From contig JQIS01000001.1 in assembly GCA_000830175.1 (NCBI GenBank), forward strand, positions 345,482 through 409,481: a stretch of 64,000 bases of DNA, written 5' to 3'. The position numbers and the translations under genes were made by a program. The notes under the pieces were generated by a model. It was not told where the DNA came from and made no database searches. It saw only the letters and a list, made by a program, of their open reading frames with translations. The number at the start of each line of letters is the position of its first letter. Positions within the stretch are counted from its first letter, which is position 1. Below are positions 9,603-33,395 of this stretch, piece by piece. The DNA comes from Sulfurovum sp. FS08-3 (GTDB lineage Bacteria > Campylobacterota > Campylobacteria > Campylobacterales > Sulfurovaceae).

Positions 9603-10253
9603 ATGGCTGATATTTTAATCCTTGAAGATGACAAACTCTTCAATGAAACACTTCAAGATTTTTTGGAGGATTTGGGGCATAAGGTCTCTTTCGCCCTTGA
9701 TCCCTACTACGCCCTCGAACTTAGCTACCAACACAACTTTGATTGTTACCTCTTTGATGTCAATTTGCCCTATGAGAGTGGCTTTGAGCTTTTGACGAAG
9801 CTGCGTCAAAGCGGAGATACTACTCCTGCTATTTTTATCACCTCTCGTGATGACAAAGCCTCTTTGCACAACGGTTTTGCGGCGGGAGCCGATGACTATA
9901 TCAAAAAACCCTTGGATCTTGATGAGCTTCATTTGCGTCTGGATGCTTTGCTCAAACGTACGCTTCGCAACGCAACCGTTGAGATTGACCACTACCATTT
10001 TGATACTCAAACCAAAATACTTTATCAAGGTGAAAATCCTTTGGAGCTAAGCCACAAAGCGGCGTTGCTTTTGTTGATTTTGATAGAAGCAAAAGGCAAT
10101 TTGGTAAGTTTTGAAACGATTCAATCACGCCTATGGGCTCCTAGCGAAGAGAGCAGTAGTGGGGCGATTAGAGTCTATGTGACGCAAATCAAAAAGTACT
10201 TTCCCAATAGAATCAAAAATATCCGTGGGGTAGGATACGCCTTTGCACTCTAA
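9603..10253 (+). CDS. OmpR/PhoB-type response regulator
   Basis: A 216-residue two-component regulator. The receiver domain (about 1-118) has the acidic pair EDD at 8-10, the phospho-acceptor Asp in FDVNLP (about 53), Thr/Ser in FITSRDD and Lys in IKKPLDLDEL (about 103). The C-terminal winged helix (about 125-216) ends with AIRVYVTQIKKYFPNRIKNIRGVGYAF, of the OmpR class. The kinase gene overlaps its 3' end by 11 bp, so the two are a cognate pair. The target genes are unknown. Confidence 0.92.
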   Translation: MADILILEDDKLFNETLQDFLEDLGHKVSFALDPYYALELSYQHNFDCYLFDVNLPYESGFELLTKLRQSGDTTPAIFITSRDDKASLHNGFAAGADDYIKKPLDLDELHLRLDALLKRTLRNATVEIDHYHFDTQTKILYQGENPLELSHKAALLLLILIEAKGNLVSFETIQSRLWAPSEESSSGAIRVYVTQIKKYFPNRIKNIRGVGYAFAL

Positions 10254-11103
10254 AAATCCCTTTTTTCTCACCTTTGTCTATACGCTTACCACTTTGATTA
10301 TGGTAGCAACTATCTATCTCTATATTGATCGCTTTGGCTATTCGCCTACCAATTTTATTCTCTCCTCTATGGTAGGGCTTTTTTTTGCGACGATGCTGGG
10401 ATATTTGCTTATTGCCTATATTGTTGAGCGTCAAAAGGCACTCGATGATGCCTTGCTTCATATTACCAAAGAGACGCTTCATGAGCTTAATATCCCTCTT
10501 GCTACCATTCAAGCCAACAGTGCCATGATAGCCAAAAGCAATCCCGATGCCAAAACACTCAAACGTCTAGGGCGTATCGATGAGGCGTCCAAACGCCTTA
10601 AACGTCTCTATATTGAGCTAAGCTACTCCATCAAAAAAGAGATAGCCACGGTTGAAAAAGAGCCTTTTGAGCTTAAAAATCTACTGCGTGAGCGGGTTGA
10701 GACGCTTATGGAGCTTGGACGAAATCCTATCACACTTCACGAGCCTTTGGAGCTTGTACTCTATCTTGATAAAATCGGATTTGAAAAGGTGATTGATAAT
10801 ATTTTGCACAATGCGATGAAATACAGCGACAAAGAGAGTCCTATTGATATTTTTCTTAAAAATAAAAGAGTGCATATTGTCGATAGAGGCATAGGGATTG
10901 ATGAGAGTCAAATGGTAGCTATTTTTGAACGCTACTTTCAAGCTACCAACACCTATGAAGGCAAAGGGATAGGTTTAGCCATAGTCAAGAGCTATTGCGA
11001 TAGATACGGCATTGGTATCGATATCAAATCAGTCAAAAACTTAGGTACTACAGTGATACTCGATCTCAAAGCTGTTTGTTTTAGTGCTTCTAACGCACAA
11101 TAA
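10243..11103 (+). CDS. Sensor histidine kinase (partner of upstream regulator)
   Basis: A 286-residue membrane kinase. Two transmembrane helices (about residues 8-28 and 38-60) flank a very short periplasmic loop. The phospho-acceptor is in ETLHELNIPL (His about 84), the N box in NILHNAMKYS, G1 in DRGIGI and G2 in GKGIGLAIVKSY. A TTG start at 10243 overlaps the regulator gene by 11 bp. From 10933 to 11086 the sequence is repeated at 12068-12221. The last six residues (after 11086) differ from the second copy, which suggests the 3' tip was replaced when the downstream cassette arrived. Confidence 0.9.
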   Translation: MHSKNPFFLTFVYTLTTLIMVATIYLYIDRFGYSPTNFILSSMVGLFFATMLGYLLIAYIVERQKALDDALLHITKETLHELNIPLATIQANSAMIAKSNPDAKTLKRLGRIDEASKRLKRLYIELSYSIKKEIATVEKEPFELKNLLRERVETLMELGRNPITLHEPLELVLYLDKIGFEKVIDNILHNAMKYSDKESPIDIFLKNKRVHIVDRGIGIDESQMVAIFERYFQATNTYEGKGIGLAIVKSYCDRYGIGIDIKSVKNLGTTVILDLKAVCFSASNAQ

Positions 11104-11118
11104 AACAACAAAAGCAAA

Positions 11119-11136
11119 CCGATAAGTTTTTTCAAA
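11119..11136 (-). pseudogene. Remnant of the start of the thioredoxin-like gene
   Basis: Read on the minus strand, 11134-11119 is identical over 16 bases to the first codons of the thioredoxin-like gene at 12571-12586, and the next codons continue as a similar hydrophobic signal peptide (LKKLIGLLLLFY compared with MKKLIGLFLFFG). The ATG is degraded. It sits just after the end of the first histidine kinase copy, where an intact convergent thioredoxin gene would be expected. Confidence 0.5.
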
Positions 11137-11192: not shown

Positions 11193-11369
11193 ATGGCAGT
11201 ACGACATATAAATCCAAATTCAAAAGTTCAAAGTGGTGTTATAGTATCAGGTCAAGATGCCCTTAAGGTATTCTCTTTATTTGATGAGTCTAAGCGAACA
11301 CAAGAGTACATCGAAACAAAAAAAAGAAAGTTTAAATCCAGACTTAAAGCCTCTATAAAAGCTTCATAA
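11193..11369 (+). CDS. Small basic protein, candidate antitoxin of the GNAT module
   Basis: A 58-residue ORF starting MAVRHINPNSKVQSG, preceded by AGGAG at 11177-11181 and ending four bases before the GNAT gene. The N-terminal half is polar and neutral; the C-terminal half (residues 33-58) is strongly basic and probably helical. It does not show the ribbon-helix-helix pattern of DUF1778 antitoxins, so the antitoxin role is inferred only from position, size and tight coupling to an acetyltransferase. The gene is probably real because of its ribosome site and spacing. Confidence 0.55.
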   Translation: MAVRHINPNSKVQSGVIVSGQDALKVFSLFDESKRTQEYIETKKRKFKSRLKASIKAS

Positions 11370-11373
11370 CTTT

Positions 11374-11967
11374 ATGCCCAAGATTATAAGCTTGTCATCT
11401 ATTAAAAGAAGTAGATACGACAAGATAAAAAAAGATTTTAGATGTTCTACAAAAGAGCTAGAAGAATACATCAAACAATATGCTTTTTCTCATCAAAAAG
11501 ATGGTTTATATCAAACATATTTTTATTTAGATGATGAGGAGAACTACTTAGGTTATATTTCGGTAGCAATTTCTTCGATAGATAGAGAGAAGATAGATAG
11601 TGAAATTGATATACCTACTTCGATAAAATATGAGATACCTGCACTTAAAATCACTCGACTTTGTACTTTTGATAACCATTGCAAAAAAGGCGTAGGGACA
11701 AAACTTGTAATATTTTGTGAAATATTAGCTCTTGCACTGCAAAAAAAGGTTGGATGTAGGGCAATAATTGTTGATAGTAAAAAAGATGCTGTTGGGTTTT
11801 ACACACAATGTGACTTTACAGAAATAGCTCAAGAAGATGATGACAATACAATCTTTATGGTATATGACCTCTTAAAAAAGAATGAACTTAATGACGAGCT
11901 TGATGATATAATCACATTTTGTAAAATGTATGGACAAAATGATTTGATAGAAATATTAAAAAGTTAG
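11374..11967 (+). CDS. GNAT-family N-acetyltransferase, probable toxin
   Basis: A 197-residue GNAT protein. The acetyl-CoA-binding region is ITRLCTFDNHCKKGVGTKLV (about 90-110), with the K-x-G-V-G-T loop. Next come a helix, the beta-5 strand CRAIIVDSKKDAV and GFYTQCDFTEI, the usual order in tRNA-acetylating toxins such as TacT/AtaT. A C-terminal tail of about 30 residues goes beyond the core fold. It lies four bases after a small basic ORF, in the same orientation, and the pair is bracketed by copies of the kinase 3' end. Codon use is more AT-rich than its neighbours, consistent with transfer. Confidence 0.7.
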   Translation: MPKIISLSSIKRSRYDKIKKDFRCSTKELEEYIKQYAFSHQKDGLYQTYFYLDDEENYLGYISVAISSIDREKIDSEIDIPTSIKYEIPALKITRLCTFDNHCKKGVGTKLVIFCEILALALQKKVGCRAIIVDSKKDAVGFYTQCDFTEIAQEDDDNTIFMVYDLLKKNELNDELDDIITFCKMYGQNDLIEILKS

Positions 11968-12067: not shown

Positions 12068-12226
12068 TACTTTCAAGCTACCAACACCTATGAAGGCAAA
12101 GGGATAGGTCTAGCCATAGTCAAGAGCTATTGCGATAGATACGGCATTGGTATCGATATCAAATCATCCAAAAACTTAGGTACTACGGTAATGCTAGACC
12201 TCAAAGCTGTTTGTTTTAGTGTATAG
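12068..12226 (+). pseudogene. Second copy of the histidine kinase 3' end
   Basis: Bases 12068-12221 repeat 10933-11086 with about 8 mismatches in 154 (about 95% identity), in the same orientation. It encodes YFQATNTYEGKGIGLAIVKS and onward, i.e. the G2 box and C-terminus of the kinase, without any upstream kinase domain. It ends CFSV-stop at 12226 and overlaps the end of the convergent thioredoxin gene by 11 bp. That overlap suggests this copy is the original kinase 3' end and that 10933-11103 came with the cassette. Confidence 0.9.
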
Positions 12227-12587
12227 CACGTTGCAACATTTGATAAAACCCCTCTACGTTTTTGCCCCCACTGTAGGATGGGATGATTTTATTGCCCTCT
12301 TGATCGACAAAATGCAAGGTGGGCGTTTGAGTGGAGTGAAGCTCTCTAGGTAATCCTTTGCTTTGATGTATGTCGTATTTAAACGATACAAAGTGTTGAT
12401 TGAGGTACGCATAAATCTTTGGGTCGCCCAATGTCTTATCCATATAAGCACAAGCGGGACACCCTTTTTGAGCGATATAGACAAAGATAGGCTTGTCTCT
12501 CTTTTGAGCCTCTTTGTAGGAATCAACCCAATCAACATTGGCATAAGCCAAACCAAAAAACAAAAACAATCCGATAAGTTTTTTCAT
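12216..12587 (-). CDS. Periplasmic thioredoxin-like protein
   Basis: A 123-residue exported protein. It has a signal peptide (MKKLIGLFLFFGLAYA) and a thioredoxin fold with the redox motif GCPACAYMD (Cys about 43 and 46) and the cis-proline TPTLHF. It resembles SoxW/thioredoxin_7 type proteins that reduce or repair thiols in the periplasm; the partner is unknown. Convergent with the kinase fragment, overlapping it by 11 bp. A short remnant of a second copy of its 5' end lies at 11119-11136. Confidence 0.85.
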   Translation of the reverse strand: MKKLIGLFLFFGLAYANVDWVDSYKEAQKRDKPIFVYIAQKGCPACAYMDKTLGDPKIYAYLNQHFVSFKYDIHQSKGLPRELHSTQTPTLHFVDQEGNKIIPSYSGGKNVEGFYQMLQRAIH

Positions 12588-12642
12588 AGTTTTCTCCGAT
12601 TTTTTATTTTTTTAAGTACATATCATCAGATACTGTATCCAA

Positions 12643-12682
12643 AAAACTTAAACATAACCTAGAAAAGAGCATCAAAAGCATT
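12643..12682 (-). repeat. Short copy of the 3' end of the DUF2269 gene
   Basis: About 39 bases match 14054-14092 (the last codons and stop of the DUF2269 gene) with four or five differences including one inserted base, in the same orientation. Shared blocks include TAAACATAACCT and AAAGAGCATCAAAAGCAT. The DUF2202 lipoprotein gene lies between the two copies. Confidence 0.8.
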
Positions 12683-12725
12683 TTGTTATTTTTACCTTCT
12701 ATTCCTACGGCAAATGCCTCTTCCC

Positions 12726-13958
12726 TTATCGTCTTGGATTTGTTTGTTGTGTGCCGTTGAGTTGAGAGTTGAAAGCAGCCAAATGGTTGTAGCTTCCCTC
12801 TAAGAGGCTATTATAGACGGTTTTAATATCCTCTGGTGCATCGACGATACGTTTTTGCAAATCGGCAATATCGGTCTCTTCGACAAGTACCCCTACCTCT
12901 ATCGCATCCGTGAGAGAAAGTGTGCCTTTTTGCATCAATGTCTCATAGAGCGATTGCAACTCCTCAAGGTCAAACTCACCTACGGTGTCACTGGCTACGG
13001 GTACAACAATCTCATATTTTTCCAACAAAGCTTTCACGCCTTGCATATGCGTCTCTTCGGCTTTGGCGATGTTGTTGAAGATTTTAAGACCCCACTTTTC
13101 GTAGAGTTTGAGATAGACATCACGTGCCACTTTCTCCTCTTGGTACATGAAGAGCAAATCATCTTTTTGTGTTTGCGTTAAAACACTCACAGGCATTGCC
13201 TCCACGATTGTACTTGGGTCTTGCGGTATGAGTGCAGTGTTGTTGATAATCTCTTGTGCTTGAGATACTTGAGTGGTATCCAACTCAACATTGAGTTGCT
13301 CCATAAGTTCTATCTCATTATTTGTCACTATATCAACCACACTTCCCTCTAAAGTTTTGGATGATTCAATTCTTGATTCGATACGACCTTGAAGCCCTTG
13401 TAGGGCTACTCTATCAAAACTCTCCATGGAGAGATTGTTTTCGATACAGTAGCGATAGACCTCATCAGAGATAGAAGCTACCTCCAAAGAGTCTGAGGGT
13501 GTCAAAGTATAGATATCCTCATGACTCAAACCGTACGTTGTCATTAACTCATTTTTAAGCTCTTCATTGATTGCTAATGTTGTAAGCAGTGTCACATTGG
13601 TTTGGTTGTGTTCATGGAGTGCTAGATTGAGTACAAGCTTGGTATCTTTTTCACCAATCACCCCATCACGATCAACATCAATGTATCCTCCATAGACATT
13701 GATAGGATAACTTGGTGTTTGCTTAAAGCGATAGTTGTTGCCACTTACATTGTAGGCTCTTTGTCCTCTATTATCAATCACATACGCCCCAACAACTGGT
13801 CCTCGCTCAACCGTAATATCCACTGGAGTGGTTGTTGCTTGAGAAGTCGTCAAAGAGGAATCTCCACTTGTGCTATCCAAAGAGTTATTTTGAGCGCTAG
13901 AGCCACATCCTATCAATAATGATGCCGCTACAAGAGAAAATAGTATCTGTTTTTTCAT
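12726..13958 (-). CDS. DUF2202 (ferritin-like) lipoprotein
   Basis: A 410-residue lipoprotein: MKKQILFSL signal, lipobox LIGC (Cys about 18), then a low-complexity Ser/Thr linker. Residues about 30-250 form an unrecognised region that includes DVDRDGVIGEKDT, an EF-hand/dockerin-like calcium loop. Residues about 258-400 are a DUF2202 domain, ferritin-like, with metal-binding candidates in YQEEKVARDVY, AKAEETHM, VLVEETD and SYNHLAAF. The start at 13958 has a ribosome site and is preferred to an upstream open extension that overlaps the next gene. The gene is bracketed by copies of the 3' end of its upstream neighbour. Confidence 0.8.
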   Translation of the reverse strand: MKKQILFSLVAASLLIGCGSSAQNNSLDSTSGDSSLTTSQATTTPVDITVERGPVVGAYVIDNRGQRAYNVSGNNYRFKQTPSYPINVYGGYIDVDRDGVIGEKDTKLVLNLALHEHNQTNVTLLTTLAINEELKNELMTTYGLSHEDIYTLTPSDSLEVASISDEVYRYCIENNLSMESFDRVALQGLQGRIESRIESSKTLEGSVVDIVTNNEIELMEQLNVELDTTQVSQAQEIINNTALIPQDPSTIVEAMPVSVLTQTQKDDLLFMYQEEKVARDVYLKLYEKWGLKIFNNIAKAEETHMQGVKALLEKYEIVVPVASDTVGEFDLEELQSLYETLMQKGTLSLTDAIEVGVLVEETDIADLQKRIVDAPEDIKTVYNSLLEGSYNHLAAFNSQLNGTQQTNPRR

Positions 13959-14059
13959 GGTATATCCTTTGAAATATTTTGTTATAGTCAAATAGTATAG
14001 TCTTCGCATGAAAAAATCGTGAAATGATTTTGCTAGGAGAGGTGGAACGAGAGAAAAAC

Positions 14060-14527
14060 CTAAACATAACCTCGAAAGAGCATCAAAAGCATCACTCCAA
14101 ACATCGCCAAAAATGAGGGAATGCCTAGCAAAAACCAAATTTTGGCGTAGCGATGATAGAGGGGCGGGAGTGCTTCTTTTTGTTCCAAAGCTTTGATGGA
14201 TAGATTACGCATTTGGATTTGCAAATAGACCGCTCCTAGCCACAAAATCCCCGAAAAACCAAAGAGAATCAGCGAATAGAGTATCCACGGAGCAGTGAGC
14301 GAATAGCCCAAAAGATGAGCCAATGCGATACCGCTAAGGGGTTGAAGGATAGCCGAGGGAGTTGTGAAGAGCCAATCGGCTAAGACGACTTGTTTGTTGA
14401 TATGCACGATAGCCTCAAGGCTTCCTTTTTTGTCGGTCATGTATTTATAAAACGCCGAACCGCTACCAATGCCCAAAAGCAAAAGCATACTTAGGAGGTG
14501 AATGAGTTTGAGTATTTCGTAGCTCAT
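14060..14527 (-). CDS. DUF2269-type integral membrane protein
   Basis: A 155-residue protein with four hydrophobic helices (about 8-27, 47-72, 78-103 and 128-150). The conserved opening ILKLIHLLSMLLLLG and the mid segment ADWLFTTPSAILQPLSG match DUF2269 (predicted integral membrane proteins of unknown function). The start at 14527 (MSYEILK) overlaps the end of the SDR-DoxX gene by four bases, so they are coupled. Its last 30 or so bases are repeated at 12643-12682. Confidence 0.75.
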   Translation of the reverse strand: MSYEILKLIHLLSMLLLLGIGSGSAFYKYMTDKKGSLEAIVHINKQVVLADWLFTTPSAILQPLSGIALAHLLGYSLTAPWILYSLILFGFSGILWLGAVYLQIQMRNLSIKALEQKEALPPLYHRYAKIWFLLGIPSFLAMFGVMLLMLFRGYV

Positions 14528-15744
14528 CTGTTTCTCTCTAGCACAATAGCTACAAAGATAGTTGCGACCAAAGGAATGTTTTTGAGTACGCATCCAAAGG
14601 GGTGAAGCCAATGGTGAGGTGCTAAAAGCGTAATGATAAGGGTATAGCCTACAATAATAATCACACTAAACCACAACATACACACGATGCGGTAATTCAA
14701 AAGTATCATCATCCCCACCGTAATATCCAAATAGGAAGCAAAGTAGAGCGTAGGCAAAGCCCAATCACCGCCAATGCCCACATCGCCTAGAAGTGCTAAC
14801 GCTCCCTCTTGGGGGTAGAAAAAAGCCGAGACCATACCGCTCCATATCCACACAAAAGCAATGACGAAACGCAAAAGGGGAGCAAAAAAGTAGAGATTGG
14901 CACTAAGCTTTTGGCTTTTGGTAGCGTGATGTTTGAAAAGTGTCTCATCGATGCTTTTGGGCGTATATCCCAAAAAGTTTGTGAGCGGTGTCGCATCGGC
15001 AACGCTTCCTCTTTTGAGCATCATAATACTCTCTTTGTTCATAATAGGTTCACCTAACATTTTGCCAAAGATTGCCAAAGAGGAGGGGATGGGGATAGTT
15101 TTTGCGGGCTTTTTGCCTAGCCATGCTCTAAATTTTTGCAAAAGCTCTTGATAGCTTAGCCTCTCTTCGCCTACGCAATCAAGCTCTATTGGGCTTTGGT
15201 TGCTCTCAAGGGCTTTGATAACCGTAGCTACCAAATCCTCAATAAAGAGGGGTTGGAGTCTCTGGTCGCCTTTGTCGATGATGGGTAAAAGGGGTAGATT
15301 GGCTAATGCTCTAAAGAGTGCCGTGCTTTTGCCCTCTTCTCCATAAACGATGGAGGGTTTTAAAATGGCGTAATGAACACTAAGGGTTCTTAGATAATCA
15401 TCGGCTGCTTTTTTGCTTAGGTGATAAGCACTCTGTGCCTCCTCATCGGCTCCTAGTGCTGAGATTTGAATTACTTTTGAAATGCCCAATTGATTGGCAG
15501 CTTCAAAGAGGGCTTTGGGGGTATCGCCGTGGAGTGCTTTGAAGCTTTGGTTGGAGGTTTGAGCGATGATGCCTACGGCATTGATAACCCCATCAAAGCC
15601 TCTTATTCGCTCTTTCCAAAGCTCTACACTGGGTTCTTGTGTGAAGTCATAACGTGGAGTAGCGGTATCGTATCCTTTGCTTTTGAGTCCCTCAACAATC
15701 GCTTTGCCTATAAATCCTGAAGCTCCCAAAACCAAAATTTTCAT
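14524..15744 (-). CDS. SDR-family NAD(P)-binding protein fused to a DoxX-like membrane domain
   Basis: A 406-residue fusion. The N-terminal Rossmann domain starts MKILVLGASGFIGKAIVEG (NAD(P) glycine motif) and runs as an atypical SDR/epimerase to about residue 270, with YHLSKKAADDYLR giving the YxxxK pair. The C-terminal 130 residues hold four transmembrane helices of DoxX-like type. This fusion is known in many Proteobacteria; substrates are unknown, and quinone or membrane redox roles are only suggested. The ribosome site GGGAG is six bases before the ATG. It leads a two-gene operon with the DUF2269 gene. Confidence 0.82.
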   Translation of the reverse strand: MKILVLGASGFIGKAIVEGLKSKGYDTATPRYDFTQEPSVELWKERIRGFDGVINAVGIIAQTSNQSFKALHGDTPKALFEAANQLGISKVIQISALGADEEAQSAYHLSKKAADDYLRTLSVHYAILKPSIVYGEEGKSTALFRALANLPLLPIIDKGDQRLQPLFIEDLVATVIKALESNQSPIELDCVGEERLSYQELLQKFRAWLGKKPAKTIPIPSSLAIFGKMLGEPIMNKESIMMLKRGSVADATPLTNFLGYTPKSIDETLFKHHATKSQKLSANLYFFAPLLRFVIAFVWIWSGMVSAFFYPQEGALALLGDVGIGGDWALPTLYFASYLDITVGMMILLNYRIVCMLWFSVIIIVGYTLIITLLAPHHWLHPFGCVLKNIPLVATIFVAIVLERNR

Positions 15745-15778: not shown

Positions 15779-15950
15779 ATATCTGATGTTACGCACTTTT
15801 ATCGGAAGTGGGACTTTAGTCCCACAAAAGCTAAGATTTGGTTGTCGTTACTATCGAAGCCAATAGATAGGTGACTGAAGTCCCACTTCCGAAATGCTAC
15901 TCCATTTGTATATTTTACAAATAGATTGCAGGTGCGTAATATCAGATAAT
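15779..15950. repeat. MITE-like nested inverted repeat, about 172 bp
   Basis: Outer arms ATCTGATGTTACGCAC (15781-15796) and GTGCGTAATATCAGAT (15932-15947) are inverted with one mismatch. Inner arms at 15803-15821 and 15873-15891 (CGGAAGTGGGACTTTAGTC and its near complement) form a second stem. There is no ORF inside. The inner motif recurs as a hairpin at 35569-35586, and TTACGCAC recurs at 29855. Confidence 0.8.
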
Positions 15951-30833: not shown

Positions 30834-30885
30834 CGTCTTTTCCTATTTTTTTGTTTTATTATACACTATTGTTATCTATTTTATA

Positions 30886-30939
30886 ATGCTTAGTTGTTTA
30901 ATTTTAATGCAATCGTATCTTAGCTTTGGTATAATTAAG
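30886..30939 (+). promoter_or_regulatory. Promoter of the K+ channel operon (copy 1 of a direct repeat)
   Basis: Contains a perfect -10 TATAAT at 30930-30935 preceded by a conserved block (AATGCAATCGTATCTTAGC at 30905-30923). The whole stretch is repeated at 33341-33395 in front of the pseudopilin gene, the AATGC-to-AAG part being nearly identical. The start site is expected near 30942. Confidence 0.7.
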
Positions 30940-30941
30940 TT

Positions 30942-31060
30942 GCAACCCAAGAGCTTTTGTGCTTATGAAGTGTGTTGCTCCTTTGGCTACGTTTAAGAGA
31001 GAATAGCAACCTACGAAGAGGCTTTGAGCGTGGGAATTATGGATGGATAATTAGGAAAAT
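30942..31060 (+). ncRNA. Candidate structured 5' leader of the K+ channel operon
   Basis: A 119-nt leader that can fold as a closed multi-branch structure: CCCA (30946-30949) pairs with TGGG (31031-31034), AGAGC (30950-30954) with GCTTT (31021-31025), and GTTGCT (30974-30979) with AGCAAC (31005-31010). It does not match a riboswitch class I recognise. Whether it regulates anything is inference. Confidence 0.35.
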
Positions 31061-32626
31061 ATGAACAGTGAGTTTTTGGTAAAGTTCTCTTATGCTTTGG
31101 AAGGCTCAAAAAGCTATCATCACATAAAAAGAAAAGTATATGAAATATTAGAAGACCACAATTATAAAAATAAAAAATATTTTGATATAGCTATGATTGT
31201 TTTGGTTCTTTTTACGGTTATTGCTTTTTTGTATGAGGTGAAGCATAAGCCACCTGCTATTATTGTTGTGATTGAAGATATTGCCATTACAATTTTTATT
31301 TTAGAGTGGTTGGGGCGTCTATGGGTTAATGGTAATATGCACAATAAAGTTATAAAACACTATTCTCAAGCAAGATTTATAGACTCTAAGTTTAAATTTC
31401 GTGTCGTCTTGTGGGATATTGTGAAAGAAAAATTAGACTTTATCTTCTCTCCTATGTCGATTATCGACCTTTTGAGTATCTTGCCCTACTATCGTCCGCT
31501 TAGAATTTTAAGAATTTTTATGTTTTTTAGACTCTTTAAGATTTTAAGATATACCAATAGTATTTCGCAATTAGCAACGATTTTTGTAGAACGAAAATTT
31601 GACTTTTTGACACTTTTGACACTTTTGACACTTTTTGTATTTGTTGTCTTTGCGGGAGCATCGGCTATATATGTTTATGAGGGACACAGTAATATTAATG
31701 ACAAAATAGATAACTTTTTTGATGCTATTTATTGGGCTATCATAACTGTTGCTACGGTTGGGTATGGAGATATCTCTCCTGTGACGGTTGAAGGAAGAGT
31801 AATTACTATTTTTTTGGTATGTTGTAGCTTTATTGTTTTGGCCTTTGGAAATGCTATTATCACTTCGGCAATGTTGCATAAATTGGCAAATATGAAAGAG
31901 AGCAATTCATTAAAATCCATATCCCAACTTAAAAAATTTCATGTTATTTGTGGTTTTAGTAAATCAGCTAAAGTTTTATGCAGAGAGTTAAAAAAGTCAA
32001 ATGAGCCTTTTATCGTTATAGACAAATTGCCCTCAGCCGATCTTAATTTGCAAGAAGATGAAAGAGGTTATAAGTTTATCTACGGTGAAGCATCCTCTCC
32101 TCTCTTGATGGAGAGAATTTTTTTGCAAAATAGGGTAAAATCTTTGATAGCGATGAGCAGTAATGATGCCACAAATACAGCCATAATATTGAATGCAAAA
32201 TCAATACAACCAAGTTTGGAGCTTATAAGTATCGTCAATATAACCAAAAATGAGAAAAAACTTCGTCTAGCGGGTGCGACCAAAACTATCATGATTAATA
32301 ATCTATCCGCCTATATTGGTGCGGGTTACATCAAACACCCTATCGCTTTTGAGGCCATTGAGAGACTTTTGATTGAAGACAAAAAGCTTATTATTGAGAC
32401 TATTGAGGTCAAAAATTCTCAATACAAACAAGAGATGACTATCTTTGAGCTAGATTTTAAAAGATTTAAGATTATACTTTTGGGTCTATCGCATCATCAT
32501 GAGTTTGTATTCAATCCCAAAAAAGATACGATAGTAAAAGCAGATGATATTTTGATAGTTGCAGGGTATGAATCGAGTATTAAAGCGTTTAAGTTGTATT
32601 TCAAATATTTTGGGAGCAAAAAGTGA
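31061..32626 (+). CDS. Voltage-gated-type K+ channel with RCK (TrkA-N/TrkA-C) domains
   Basis: A 521-residue six-helix K+ channel. S1 and S2 lie at about 42-60 and 68-85; S4 carries spaced arginines in RPLRILRIFMFFRLFKILR (about 145-163), so it may be voltage-sensitive. The pore helix and filter TVGYGD lie near residue 231. The cytosolic part has a TrkA-N nucleotide-binding fold (about 290-410) and a TrkA-C domain to the end. In S5 a 9 bp tandem repeat encodes TLLTLLTL. The stop overlaps the next gene by GTGA. Confidence 0.9.
   Translation: MNSEFLVKFSYALEGSKSYHHIKRKVYEILEDHNYKNKKYFDIAMIVLVLFTVIAFLYEVKHKPPAIIVVIEDIAITIFILEWLGRLWVNGNMHNKVIKHYSQARFIDSKFKFRVVLWDIVKEKLDFIFSPMSIIDLLSILPYYRPLRILRIFMFFRLFKILRYTNSISQLATIFVERKFDFLTLLTLLTLFVFVVFAGASAIYVYEGHSNINDKIDNFFDAIYWAIITVATVGYGDISPVTVEGRVITIFLVCCSFIVLAFGNAIITSAMLHKLANMKESNSLKSISQLKKFHVICGFSKSAKVLCRELKKSNEPFIVIDKLPSADLNLQEDERGYKFIYGEASSPLLMERIFLQNRVKSLIAMSSNDATNTAIILNAKSIQPSLELISIVNITKNEKKLRLAGATKTIMINNLSAYIGAGYIKHPIAFEAIERLLIEDKKLIIETIEVKNSQYKQEMTIFELDFKRFKIILLGLSHHHEFVFNPKKDTIVKADDILIVAGYESSIKAFKLYFKYFGSKK
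31607..31633 (+). repeat. Three tandem copies of a 9 bp unit inside the channel gene
   Basis: TTGACACTT repeated exactly three times, in frame, in the S5 helix. A gain or loss of one unit would add or remove three residues. Confidence 0.9.
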
Positions 32627-33315
32627 CACAAAAGCGGATTGTTGTCTATGGGTATAACGATTTTACAAAAGAGTTGATTGATTTGAGCGATAAGACTCTT
32701 TTTGATATCTTAGTGATTGAGCCAAATGGTGAGAATTTTGCAAAAGCTAGAAACAACGGAATTTTGGCTTTAAAATTATCCTTGCTTGATGATGAGGAGT
32801 TGGAGCAGATAGAGATAACTTCAAGTAATATCAAATCTTTTGTCGTGGCAAGTGAAAATAGTAGCGACAATCTTTTTGTTACGCTCTCGGCTAGAGCATT
32901 AAATCCCGATTTGTCGATCATTGCCCTTAGTGAATCGGAACATAAAAATCAACAATTTTATTTAGCAGGTGCAAATATAGTGATCAATCCAACGACTATT
33001 TGTGGGCTTCGTATTGCACGATTGATTTCAAAACCTCTTGTTGTAGATTTGTTGGATAATATACTTTTTGGCTCGTATGATATCAATTTGCATGAACATA
33101 TCATAGACAAATATTCAAAACTCAATACGCTAACCATCAATGATGTCGATTTTAATTTTTTCAATCTTATCTTATTGGGGCTTCAAGATAGAGAGTTGAG
33201 TGATAGGTTTATATTTGGTACTTTTGAGCAAAATCATCGACTTGATACCCATGATGTGTTGGTTTTGTTGGGTAGGGATGATGACTTTCAAGGCTTTGTG
33301 AACTTTTATGCTTAG
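32623..33315 (+). CDS. TrkA-N/TrkA-C (RCK) domain protein, partner of the K+ channel
   Basis: A 230-residue soluble protein with the Rossmann fold of K+ channel regulators: RIVVYGYNDFTKELIDL at the start (glycine motif degenerate), VIEPNGENFAKAR, and a C-terminal TrkA-C-like domain ending LVLLGRDDDFQGF. It lies directly behind the channel, whose stop it overlaps (GTGA), so it probably assembles with the channel's own RCK ring as a hetero-gating ring. GTG start. Confidence 0.8.
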   Translation: MTQKRIVVYGYNDFTKELIDLSDKTLFDILVIEPNGENFAKARNNGILALKLSLLDDEELEQIEITSSNIKSFVVASENSSDNLFVTLSARALNPDLSIIALSESEHKNQQFYLAGANIVINPTTICGLRIARLISKPLVVDLLDNILFGSYDINLHEHIIDKYSKLNTLTINDVDFNFFNLILLGLQDRELSDRFIFGTFEQNHRLDTHDVLVLLGRDDDFQGFVNFYA

Positions 33316-33340
33316 AAAATTTTGCCAATCCAAATAAACA

Positions 33341-33395
33341 ATGCTCAATTGCGTGGTTTTAATGCAATCGTATCTTAGCTTTTGATATAATTAAG
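33341..33395 (+). promoter_or_regulatory. Promoter of the pseudopilin operon (copy 2 of the direct repeat)
   Basis: Repeats 30886-30939 with a few differences and a one-base indel; -10 TATAAT at 33386-33391, about 21 bp before the pseudopilin ATG. The two copies bracket the K+ channel operon. Confidence 0.7.

What the first reader, a model, noticed from the sequence alone, without database searches (positions are those of the whole stretch)
12643..14092. Non-toxin cargo: DUF2202 lipoprotein between copies of a DUF2269 gene end
About 39 bp around the DUF2269 stop recur 1.4 kb downstream behind the DUF2202 lipoprotein gene. It extends the pattern to non-toxin cargo and lies next to the kinase cassette, so two such events touch the same locus.
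Basis: seen in the sequence. Interest (0 to 1): 0.55.

Follow-up and report, generated by a model that had tools for sequence, protein, structure and literature searches.

The report
Lipoprotein gene inserted at gene end
In an environmental bacterium a small lipoprotein gene appears to have been spliced in beside another gene, leaving a spare, decaying copy of that gene's tail; similar scars recur in this genome and in relatives, which hints at a way that small genes move without a dedicated mobility enzyme.

Summary
The repeat is real: 12642-12681 and 14054-14092 match over 40 columns at 92.5% (one 1-nt gap, E 9e-8; best of 5000 shuffles 29 against 63), and a search of the 2.54-Mb genome found only these two copies. 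The 14054 copy is the intact DUF2269 3' end; the other is a frameshifted remnant. Between them lies a DUF2202 lipoprotein gene, with no transposase or integrase ORF.

The pattern recurs. In the 428-kb contig, close near-identical repeats are 18 direct pairs against 2 inverted; hand sorting leaves nine loci with cargo between partial target copies. Three sister cases have single-copy or joined sites in relatives: a K+ channel cassette, a BrnT toxin cassette in G001 and, independently, a DUF2269 gene end in L009 against L014.

For this exact locus no joined-flank genome was found, and a REP-like sequence beside the intact copy keeps a one-sided recombination model open. Best reading: insertion with long target duplication, discussed for Helicobacter restriction-modification genes, here with non-toxin cargo.

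The parts
10243..11103 (+). Histidine kinase gene, target of the neighbouring toxin-cassette event
   Evidence: HATPase_c and a sub-threshold HisKA match; 97% and 95% protein identity in G001 and G002
10933..11086 (+). Kinase 3' region, copy in the intact gene
   Evidence: 94.8% to 12068-12221 over 154 nt
11103..11134 (-). Partial copy of the thioredoxin-like gene start, left of the toxin cassette
   Evidence: 90.6% to 12555-12586
11193..11369 (+). Small ORF before the GNAT gene, candidate antitoxin (inferred from position)
   Evidence: no Pfam match
11374..11967 (+). GNAT-fold gene, candidate toxin (inferred)
   Evidence: Acetyltransf_10
12068..12221 (+). Kinase 3' fragment, second copy
12216..12587 (-). 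Thioredoxin-like protein gene, downstream neighbour of the remnant
   Evidence: Thioredoxin_7; no listed match above 41% identity in relatives
12642..12681 (-). Remnant copy of the DUF2269 3' end, frameshifted
12682..14053 (.). Segment between the two copies (1372 bp), read as the insert
12726..13958 (-). DUF2202 lipoprotein gene (cargo)
   Evidence: PF09968 E 5e-44; G001 homolog at another locus, 85% DNA over 13470-14031
14037..14052 (+). REP-like half palindrome GAGAGGTGGAACGAGA at the cargo edge
14054..14092 (-). Repeated segment in the intact DUF2269 3' end
14060..14527 (-). DUF2269 gene, intact target gene
   Evidence: PF10027 E 1.6e-45; 95.5% DNA to G001
14524..15744 (-). Epimerase/DoxX gene upstream of DUF2269
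   Evidence: a similar pair is seen in L009 and L007

Best explanation
A 1.37-kb segment with a DUF2202 lipoprotein gene was inserted at the 3' end of the DUF2269 gene, and about 40 nt of the gene end was duplicated. One copy ends the intact gene; the other is left beyond the cargo as a decaying scar. Most likely mechanism, inferred: a break or stalled 3' end near the gene end was extended onto foreign or distant DNA and then rejoined the chromosome tens of bases behind its point of departure, giving cargo plus a direct duplication of variable length with no integrase. Insertions inside a gene survive only if the duplication rebuilds the gene, which would explain the gene-end placement. Shown: the repeat, its decay, the cargo, and (by parsimony) insertion with duplication at sister loci. 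Inferred: insertion at this locus, template switching, and the enzyme (multi-copy PDDEXK_2 nucleases are a candidate).
For: Repeat far above chance and only two copies found in the genome. The remnant carries a frameshift that the intact copy and G001 lack. The same kind of scar recurs: contig C59 has 18 direct (17 under the merging) against 2 inverted pairs of at least 80% identity, at most 300 nt, at least 42 bits, 0.3-6 kb apart. Single-copy sites: K+ channel cassette, 2400 bp, 55-56-nt repeat, single copy in G001; BrnT cassette in G001, 761 bp, 38-44-nt repeat, single copy in G000 and G002. Independent case at the same gene: L009 has the DUF2269 end twice (27 nt, one mismatch; 0 of 200 shuffles reach it) around two genes, while L014 has DUF2269 directly before a relative of the same downstream gene. 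The lipoprotein gene lies elsewhere in G001 at lower DNA identity (85%) than the genes flanking it in the window (95%). Repeat lengths vary from 27 to 154 nt. Carbonic anhydrase copies differ by 4 of 99 from each other but by 8 and 10 from G001, with 3 of the 4 differences on the fragment.
Against: No genome with the two flanks of this locus joined was found. The intact copy is followed by a REP-like sequence, and in G001 the DUF2269 stop is followed by a sequence that I read by eye as REP-like; if REP was ancestral there, a simple target duplication should leave it beside the remnant, not beside the intact gene. The remnant shares the TAA stop with G001 while the intact copy has TAG, one base only. 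Kinase copies differ from each other (8 of 154) as much as from G001 (7 and 8 of 150), and 5 of 7 changed codons are synonymous, which fits diverged alleles as well as an old duplication. The carbonic anhydrase event has no empty site in G001. The K+ channel single-copy site could be a precise loss between repeats. Only 1 of 25 other DUF2269 loci shows a repeated gene end.
Confidence: 0.6

Rival explanations
1. Homology-facilitated illegitimate recombination: incoming DNA carrying epimerase-DUF2269-REP-lipoprotein paired through its homologous part and joined illegitimately at the other end, leaving the last 33 nt of the resident DUF2269 allele downstream. The copies are then alleles, not duplicates.
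For: REP-like sequence after DUF2269 in G000 and, by eye, in G001; TAA in remnant and G001 against TAG in the intact copy; kinase copies as far from each other as from G001, 5 of 7 changed codons synonymous; a ComEC-like competence gene is present. A similar scheme was proposed for Vibrio effector-immunity arrays with leftover 3' pieces (PMC5361080, passages).
Against: It needs a donor in which the cargo already sits beside this gene. The BrnT and K+ channel sites, with single copies in relatives, fit duplication directly. Carbonic anhydrase copies are sisters relative to G001.
Confidence: 0.25
2. Junction of older rearrangements: tandem duplication or translocation of the DUF2269 region followed by deletion, with the lipoprotein gene resident or arriving separately.
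For: Gene neighbourhoods around the examined genes differ between G000, G001 and G002, and local direct repeats also arise by tandem duplication.
Against: The second copy lacks the downstream REP and any second lipoprotein piece, which a plain tandem duplication of that stretch would carry. The cargo homolog is at another locus in G001.
Confidence: 0.11
3. Site-specific island using the gene 3' end as attachment site.
For: Gene-end direct repeats are typical of integrase islands (recalled).
Against: No integrase-like gene in the 1372 bp (gene calls and ORFs; Pfam of the one gene); each event uses a different target and repeat length.
Confidence: 0.03
4. Chance match or dispersed repeat.
For: None beyond the short REP-like hits at C16 and C56.
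Against: Shuffle tests and whole-genome search.
Confidence: 0.01

Closest known systems
Insertion with long target duplication of restriction-modification genes in Helicobacter pylori (Nobusato et al. 2000; Furuta et al. 2010)
   Same: Cargo without its own mobility gene, flanked by long variable direct copies of the target, inferred from genome comparison; same bacterial phylum (recalled).
   Different: Cargo here is a DUF2202 lipoprotein, and at sister loci toxin-antitoxin pairs, a K+ channel pair, FA_hydroxylase plus SIR2. The two original papers were not read: Furuta 2010 is not held, Nobusato 2000 was not looked up. Known from passages in PMC3874152, PMC3031569 and PMC4978471.
Homology-facilitated illegitimate recombination (three competent species per the abstract start of PMC3240628 in the listing; proposed for Vibrio effector arrays, PMC5361080, passages)
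   Same: Can leave a 3' piece of the displaced gene behind new cargo.
   Different: Needs a homologous anchor on the incoming DNA; not demonstrated here.
Rpn recombination-promoting nucleases of E. coli (PMC5350276, passages)
   Same: RecA-independent joining with a proposed template switch; PDDEXK_2 nucleases, which I take to be of a similar kind, have 10 matches in this genome, 8 over the cut-off.
   Different: The studied proteins belong to PF04754, not PF12784, and their recombinants carried large segmental replacements; no link to these scars was tested.

Membership tests
Insertion with long target duplication | Cargo flanked by long, variable-length direct copies of target sequence | tested here: met
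   40 columns here; 27 to 154 nt at sister loci
Insertion with long target duplication | Related genome with a single target copy and no cargo | tested here: inconclusive
   Not found for this locus; found for the K+ channel cassette, the BrnT cassette and the L009 DUF2269 end; not found for carbonic anhydrase
Insertion with long target duplication | No transposase or integrase in the insert | tested here: met
   ORF list and gene calls for 12682-14053, and Pfam
Mobile restriction-modification unit | Cargo is a restriction-modification system | tested here: not met
   DUF2202 only
Homology-facilitated illegitimate recombination | Two copies are alleles of different origin, one with a homologous anchor | tested here: inconclusive
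   Kinase copies equidistant from each other and G001, carbonic anhydrase copies sisters; the DUF2269 copies are too short
IS or transposon | Transposase, terminal inverted repeats, short fixed target duplication | tested here: not met
   No transposase-like gene; no inverted repeat pair at the two insert ends among the 19 listed; duplication about 40 nt here and variable between loci

The most novel reading that the evidence does not exclude
These bacteria carry a general, integrase-free cassette process: repair-type template switching, perhaps started by their multi-copy PDDEXK_2 nucleases and aided by REP-like hairpins, repeatedly drops any small gene (toxin pairs, lipoproteins, channels) at gene ends and rebuilds the gene by duplicating its tail, so that the same gene ends become reusable docking sites (DUF2269 in two lineages; the radical-SAM gene end with three different cargos).
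Probability: 0.2. Interest if true: 0.75.

Novelty: new variant of a known kind. Interest (0 to 1): 0.5.

Why it matters
Insertion with long target duplication has been discussed for restriction-modification genes. If ordinary envelope, transport and metabolic genes move in the same way, leaving readable scars, then small-gene acquisition in these genomes can be dated and counted, and the question of which process makes the long duplications becomes testable in a culturable relative.

Tried and rejected
Empty site at this locus: the DUF2269 protein search of genome contigs gave 26 loci; the genus search gave DUF2269 in 2 of 5 genomes, own included. I saw none with DUF2269 joined to the thioredoxin gene; only L005 and L009 were read at length, the others were tested for a repeated gene end and a few ends were printed. 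G001 has its DUF2269 split over two contigs whose ends look like insertion-sequence ends, and other DNA after the stop, with many dispersed matches.

REP-like sequence as the cause: it lies at the cargo edge here and at the lipoprotein cargo at C59 244088-245209, but a strict dispersed-repeat test found such repeats at 2 of 20 cargo edges (10 events) against 17 of 234 ordinary gene-stop windows; no clear excess, and the threshold misses the copy at this locus. Suggestive only.

DUF2202 as a habitually repeat-flanked cargo: of 30 DUF2202 loci, 9 had some direct repeat more than 300 bp apart. Apart from this locus and the repetitive L092, only L078 had a strong pair, which I read as a REP-like element, so rejected; the rest were weak (E 8e-4 or worse).

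Pairs dropped before counting loci. The 18 direct pairs fall into ten rows at the nine loci kept and eight set aside: 30008 and 30583 (pieces of an ATPase-like gene), 32448, 32600 and 32686 (repeats of a leucine-rich-repeat-like stretch), 138373 and 331408 (dispersed or REP elements), 152373 (100% identical 67 nt at a truncated asd-like gene, possible assembly fault). Pairs under 80% identity (28 and 40: repeat proteins and paralogs) were left out. The pair 41518/42663 of the window (41 bits) lies under the line but was shown. Controls on two other genomes, 400 kb each: G026 7 direct against 0 inverted; G023 22 against 12, so dispersed repeats inflate it. The G026 and G023 pairs were not annotated, so I do not know how many are of this kind.

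Literature: searches; no paper held the terms Sulfurovum, toxin-antitoxin and direct repeats together. That is not proof that nothing is in print.

Full report
What is there. The window lies in a 428-kb contig (C59) of a 2.54-Mb genome. Its close relative G001 is the Sulfurovum record DYMA: the two DYMA loci fetched are contained in G001 contigs letter for letter. On the minus strand the order is epimerase/DoxX, DUF2269, DUF2202 lipoprotein, a 40-nt remnant, a thioredoxin-like gene. The remnant at 12642-12681 matches the intact DUF2269 3' end at 14054-14092 over 40 columns, 92.5%, E 8.7e-8, score 63 against a shuffle maximum of 29. The genome search found only these two copies; two further short hits fall on query 17-43, mostly the REP-like stretch next to it. 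In the remnant the reading frame is broken by one inserted base that neither the intact copy nor G001 has.

The cargo. The 1372 bp between the copies carry one called gene, DUF2202 (PF09968, E 5e-44), with a lipoprotein-like N-terminus (read from the sequence), and no transposase or integrase gene. In G001 the nearest homolog (88% protein identity over residues 1-165, 85% DNA over 13470-14031) is at another place, behind a short piece that I read as a truncated oxidoreductase start; it stops near a contig end. Genes beside the window copy are about 95% identical between the two genomes, so the lipoprotein probably did not travel with its present neighbours; faster evolution of that gene is not excluded.

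The neighbourhood. The kinase cassette beside it is the same kind of structure: kinase 3' region twice (154 nt, 94.8%) around a small ORF and a GNAT gene; the left side also carries 32 nt of the thioredoxin-gene start. In G002 the kinase end is followed, in the 1.5 kb at hand, by other genes, with no toxin cassette and no thioredoxin.

How general. Self-comparison of C59 gave, for pairs at least 80% identical, at most 300 nt, at least 42 bits and 0.3-6 kb apart, 18 direct pairs (17 under the coarser merging) and 2 inverted. By hand sorting with a simple gene finder, nine loci have cargo between partial copies: 36546 (several genes not identified) and 40556 (SLFN_AlbA_2 gene), which overlap; 109156 (PIN gene with a small partner); 168322 (HepT-like plus nucleotidyltransferase beside a restriction specificity gene); 244088 (lipoprotein-like gene at a radical-SAM gene end); 356414 (kinase); 358123 (this one); 376366 (ion channel and TrkA_N genes); 383068 (PIN pair at a carbonic anhydrase end). 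In three of these (244088, 358123, 383068) the gene caller placed an intact gene's stop inside the repeat. Two other genomes, 400 kb each, gave 7 against 0 and 22 against 12.

Single-copy sites. For the K+ channel cassette (window 30885-33395) G001 runs through left flank, one repeat copy and right flank without the 2400-bp cargo; G002 keeps 117 bp of the cargo end. At the radical-SAM gene end G001 holds two cassettes, one with a BrnT toxin (E 6e-19) and one with a RelE-like ORF (just under the Pfam cut-off), where G000 has the lipoprotein. The BrnT cassette is flanked by 38-44-nt copies of a stretch that is single in G000 and G002. For the PIN cassette at 109156 G001 has the same two copies with a shorter cargo; G002 has cargo pieces and, in the stretch read, one copy; corresponding copies are identical or nearly so between species while the two copies differ from each other, so that event is older than the species split and is not an assembly fault of one genome. 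The carbonic anhydrase event has no empty site in G001.

A second DUF2269 case. I compared the DUF2269 3' region with its own downstream DNA in 25 of the 26 loci (L030, which holds only the gene start, was left out; the downstream DNA is under 2 kb in several): 1 of 25 has a repeat at E 0.01 or better, L009, 27 nt with one mismatch, 0 of 200 shuffles as good. Between the copies are an FA_hydroxylase and a SIR2 gene. In L014 DUF2269 is followed directly by a relative (43% protein identity) of the gene that in L009 follows the second copy. So the same gene end seems to have been used in two lineages with different cargo.

Duplicates or alleles? Kinase copies: 8 of 154 differ; they differ from G001 by 7 and 8 of 150; 5 of 7 changed codons are synonymous. 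Carbonic anhydrase copies: 4 of 99 differ, against 8 and 10 to G001, three of the four on the fragment. The first pattern fits alleles or an old duplication, the second a duplication. For DUF2269 the REP-like stretch beside the intact copy, and a sequence at the G001 stop that I read as REP-like, suggest that the intact copy keeps an old flank, which favours one-sided recombination; the remnant is too short to decide.

Mechanism. Long, variable direct duplications without integrase fit repair-type template switching that returns behind its point of departure; selection then keeps events that rebuild the gene. This is inference. PDDEXK_2 has 10 matches in this genome (8 over the cut-off, two of them adjacent pieces) and 6, 4, 13 and 1 in its four genus mates G001, G002, G003 and G004; of the 8 further genomes searched, 4 of the same family and 3 of the order have none, and one of the order, G040, has 11. 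E. coli Rpn nucleases of another Pfam family raise RecA-independent recombination when overproduced (PMC5350276, passages). No link was tested.

Known or new. The closest kind is insertion with long target duplication of restriction-modification genes (passages in PMC3874152, PMC3031569, PMC4978471). The structure is the same, the cargo is not. I file it as a new variant of that kind, with the caveat that this locus itself lacks an empty site.

Noticed in passing
window 14037-14052; C59 245146, 330123, 331408-331440, 332884-332916, 381103: REP-like palindrome family (GAGAGGTGGAACGAGA). It lies at the cargo edge of both lipoprotein cassettes; no clear excess at cargo edges by a strict test.
   Followed up: partly
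C59 244061-245209 and L227 (G001 C74): The radical-SAM gene end is a hot spot: a lipoprotein-like cargo in G000, BrnT and RelE-like cargo in G001, with overlapping target copies.
   Followed up: partly
C59 152373-153656: Identical 67-nt repeats around a RhuM-family gene next to what looks like an asd gene lacking its start; real insertion or assembly fault not settled.
   Followed up: no
window 11103-11134: A copy of the thioredoxin-gene start left of the toxin cassette suggests that its target copy once reached beyond the kinase into the thioredoxin gene.
   Followed up: no
L095, L096, L094 (G001 C235, C203, C204): In G001 both DUF2269 and the DUF2202 gene stop near contig ends; the ends of C235 and C204 share one sequence by eye, probably copies of one insertion sequence.
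   Followed up: partly
G000, G001, G002, G003, G040: PDDEXK_2 nuclease genes are multi-copy (4 to 13 matches, some below the cut-off or fragments) in these genomes and unmatched in 4 of 4 same-family genomes of other genera searched.
   Followed up: partly
L078 1310-1351 and 2534-2575: A different DUF2202 gene in G004 lies between two 42-nt copies (95%) of what looks like a REP element.
   Followed up: partly
window about 15797-15908; C59 138373-143565: Dispersed palindromic element (GTGGGACTTTAGTCCCAC type) with matches in G001.
   Followed up: no
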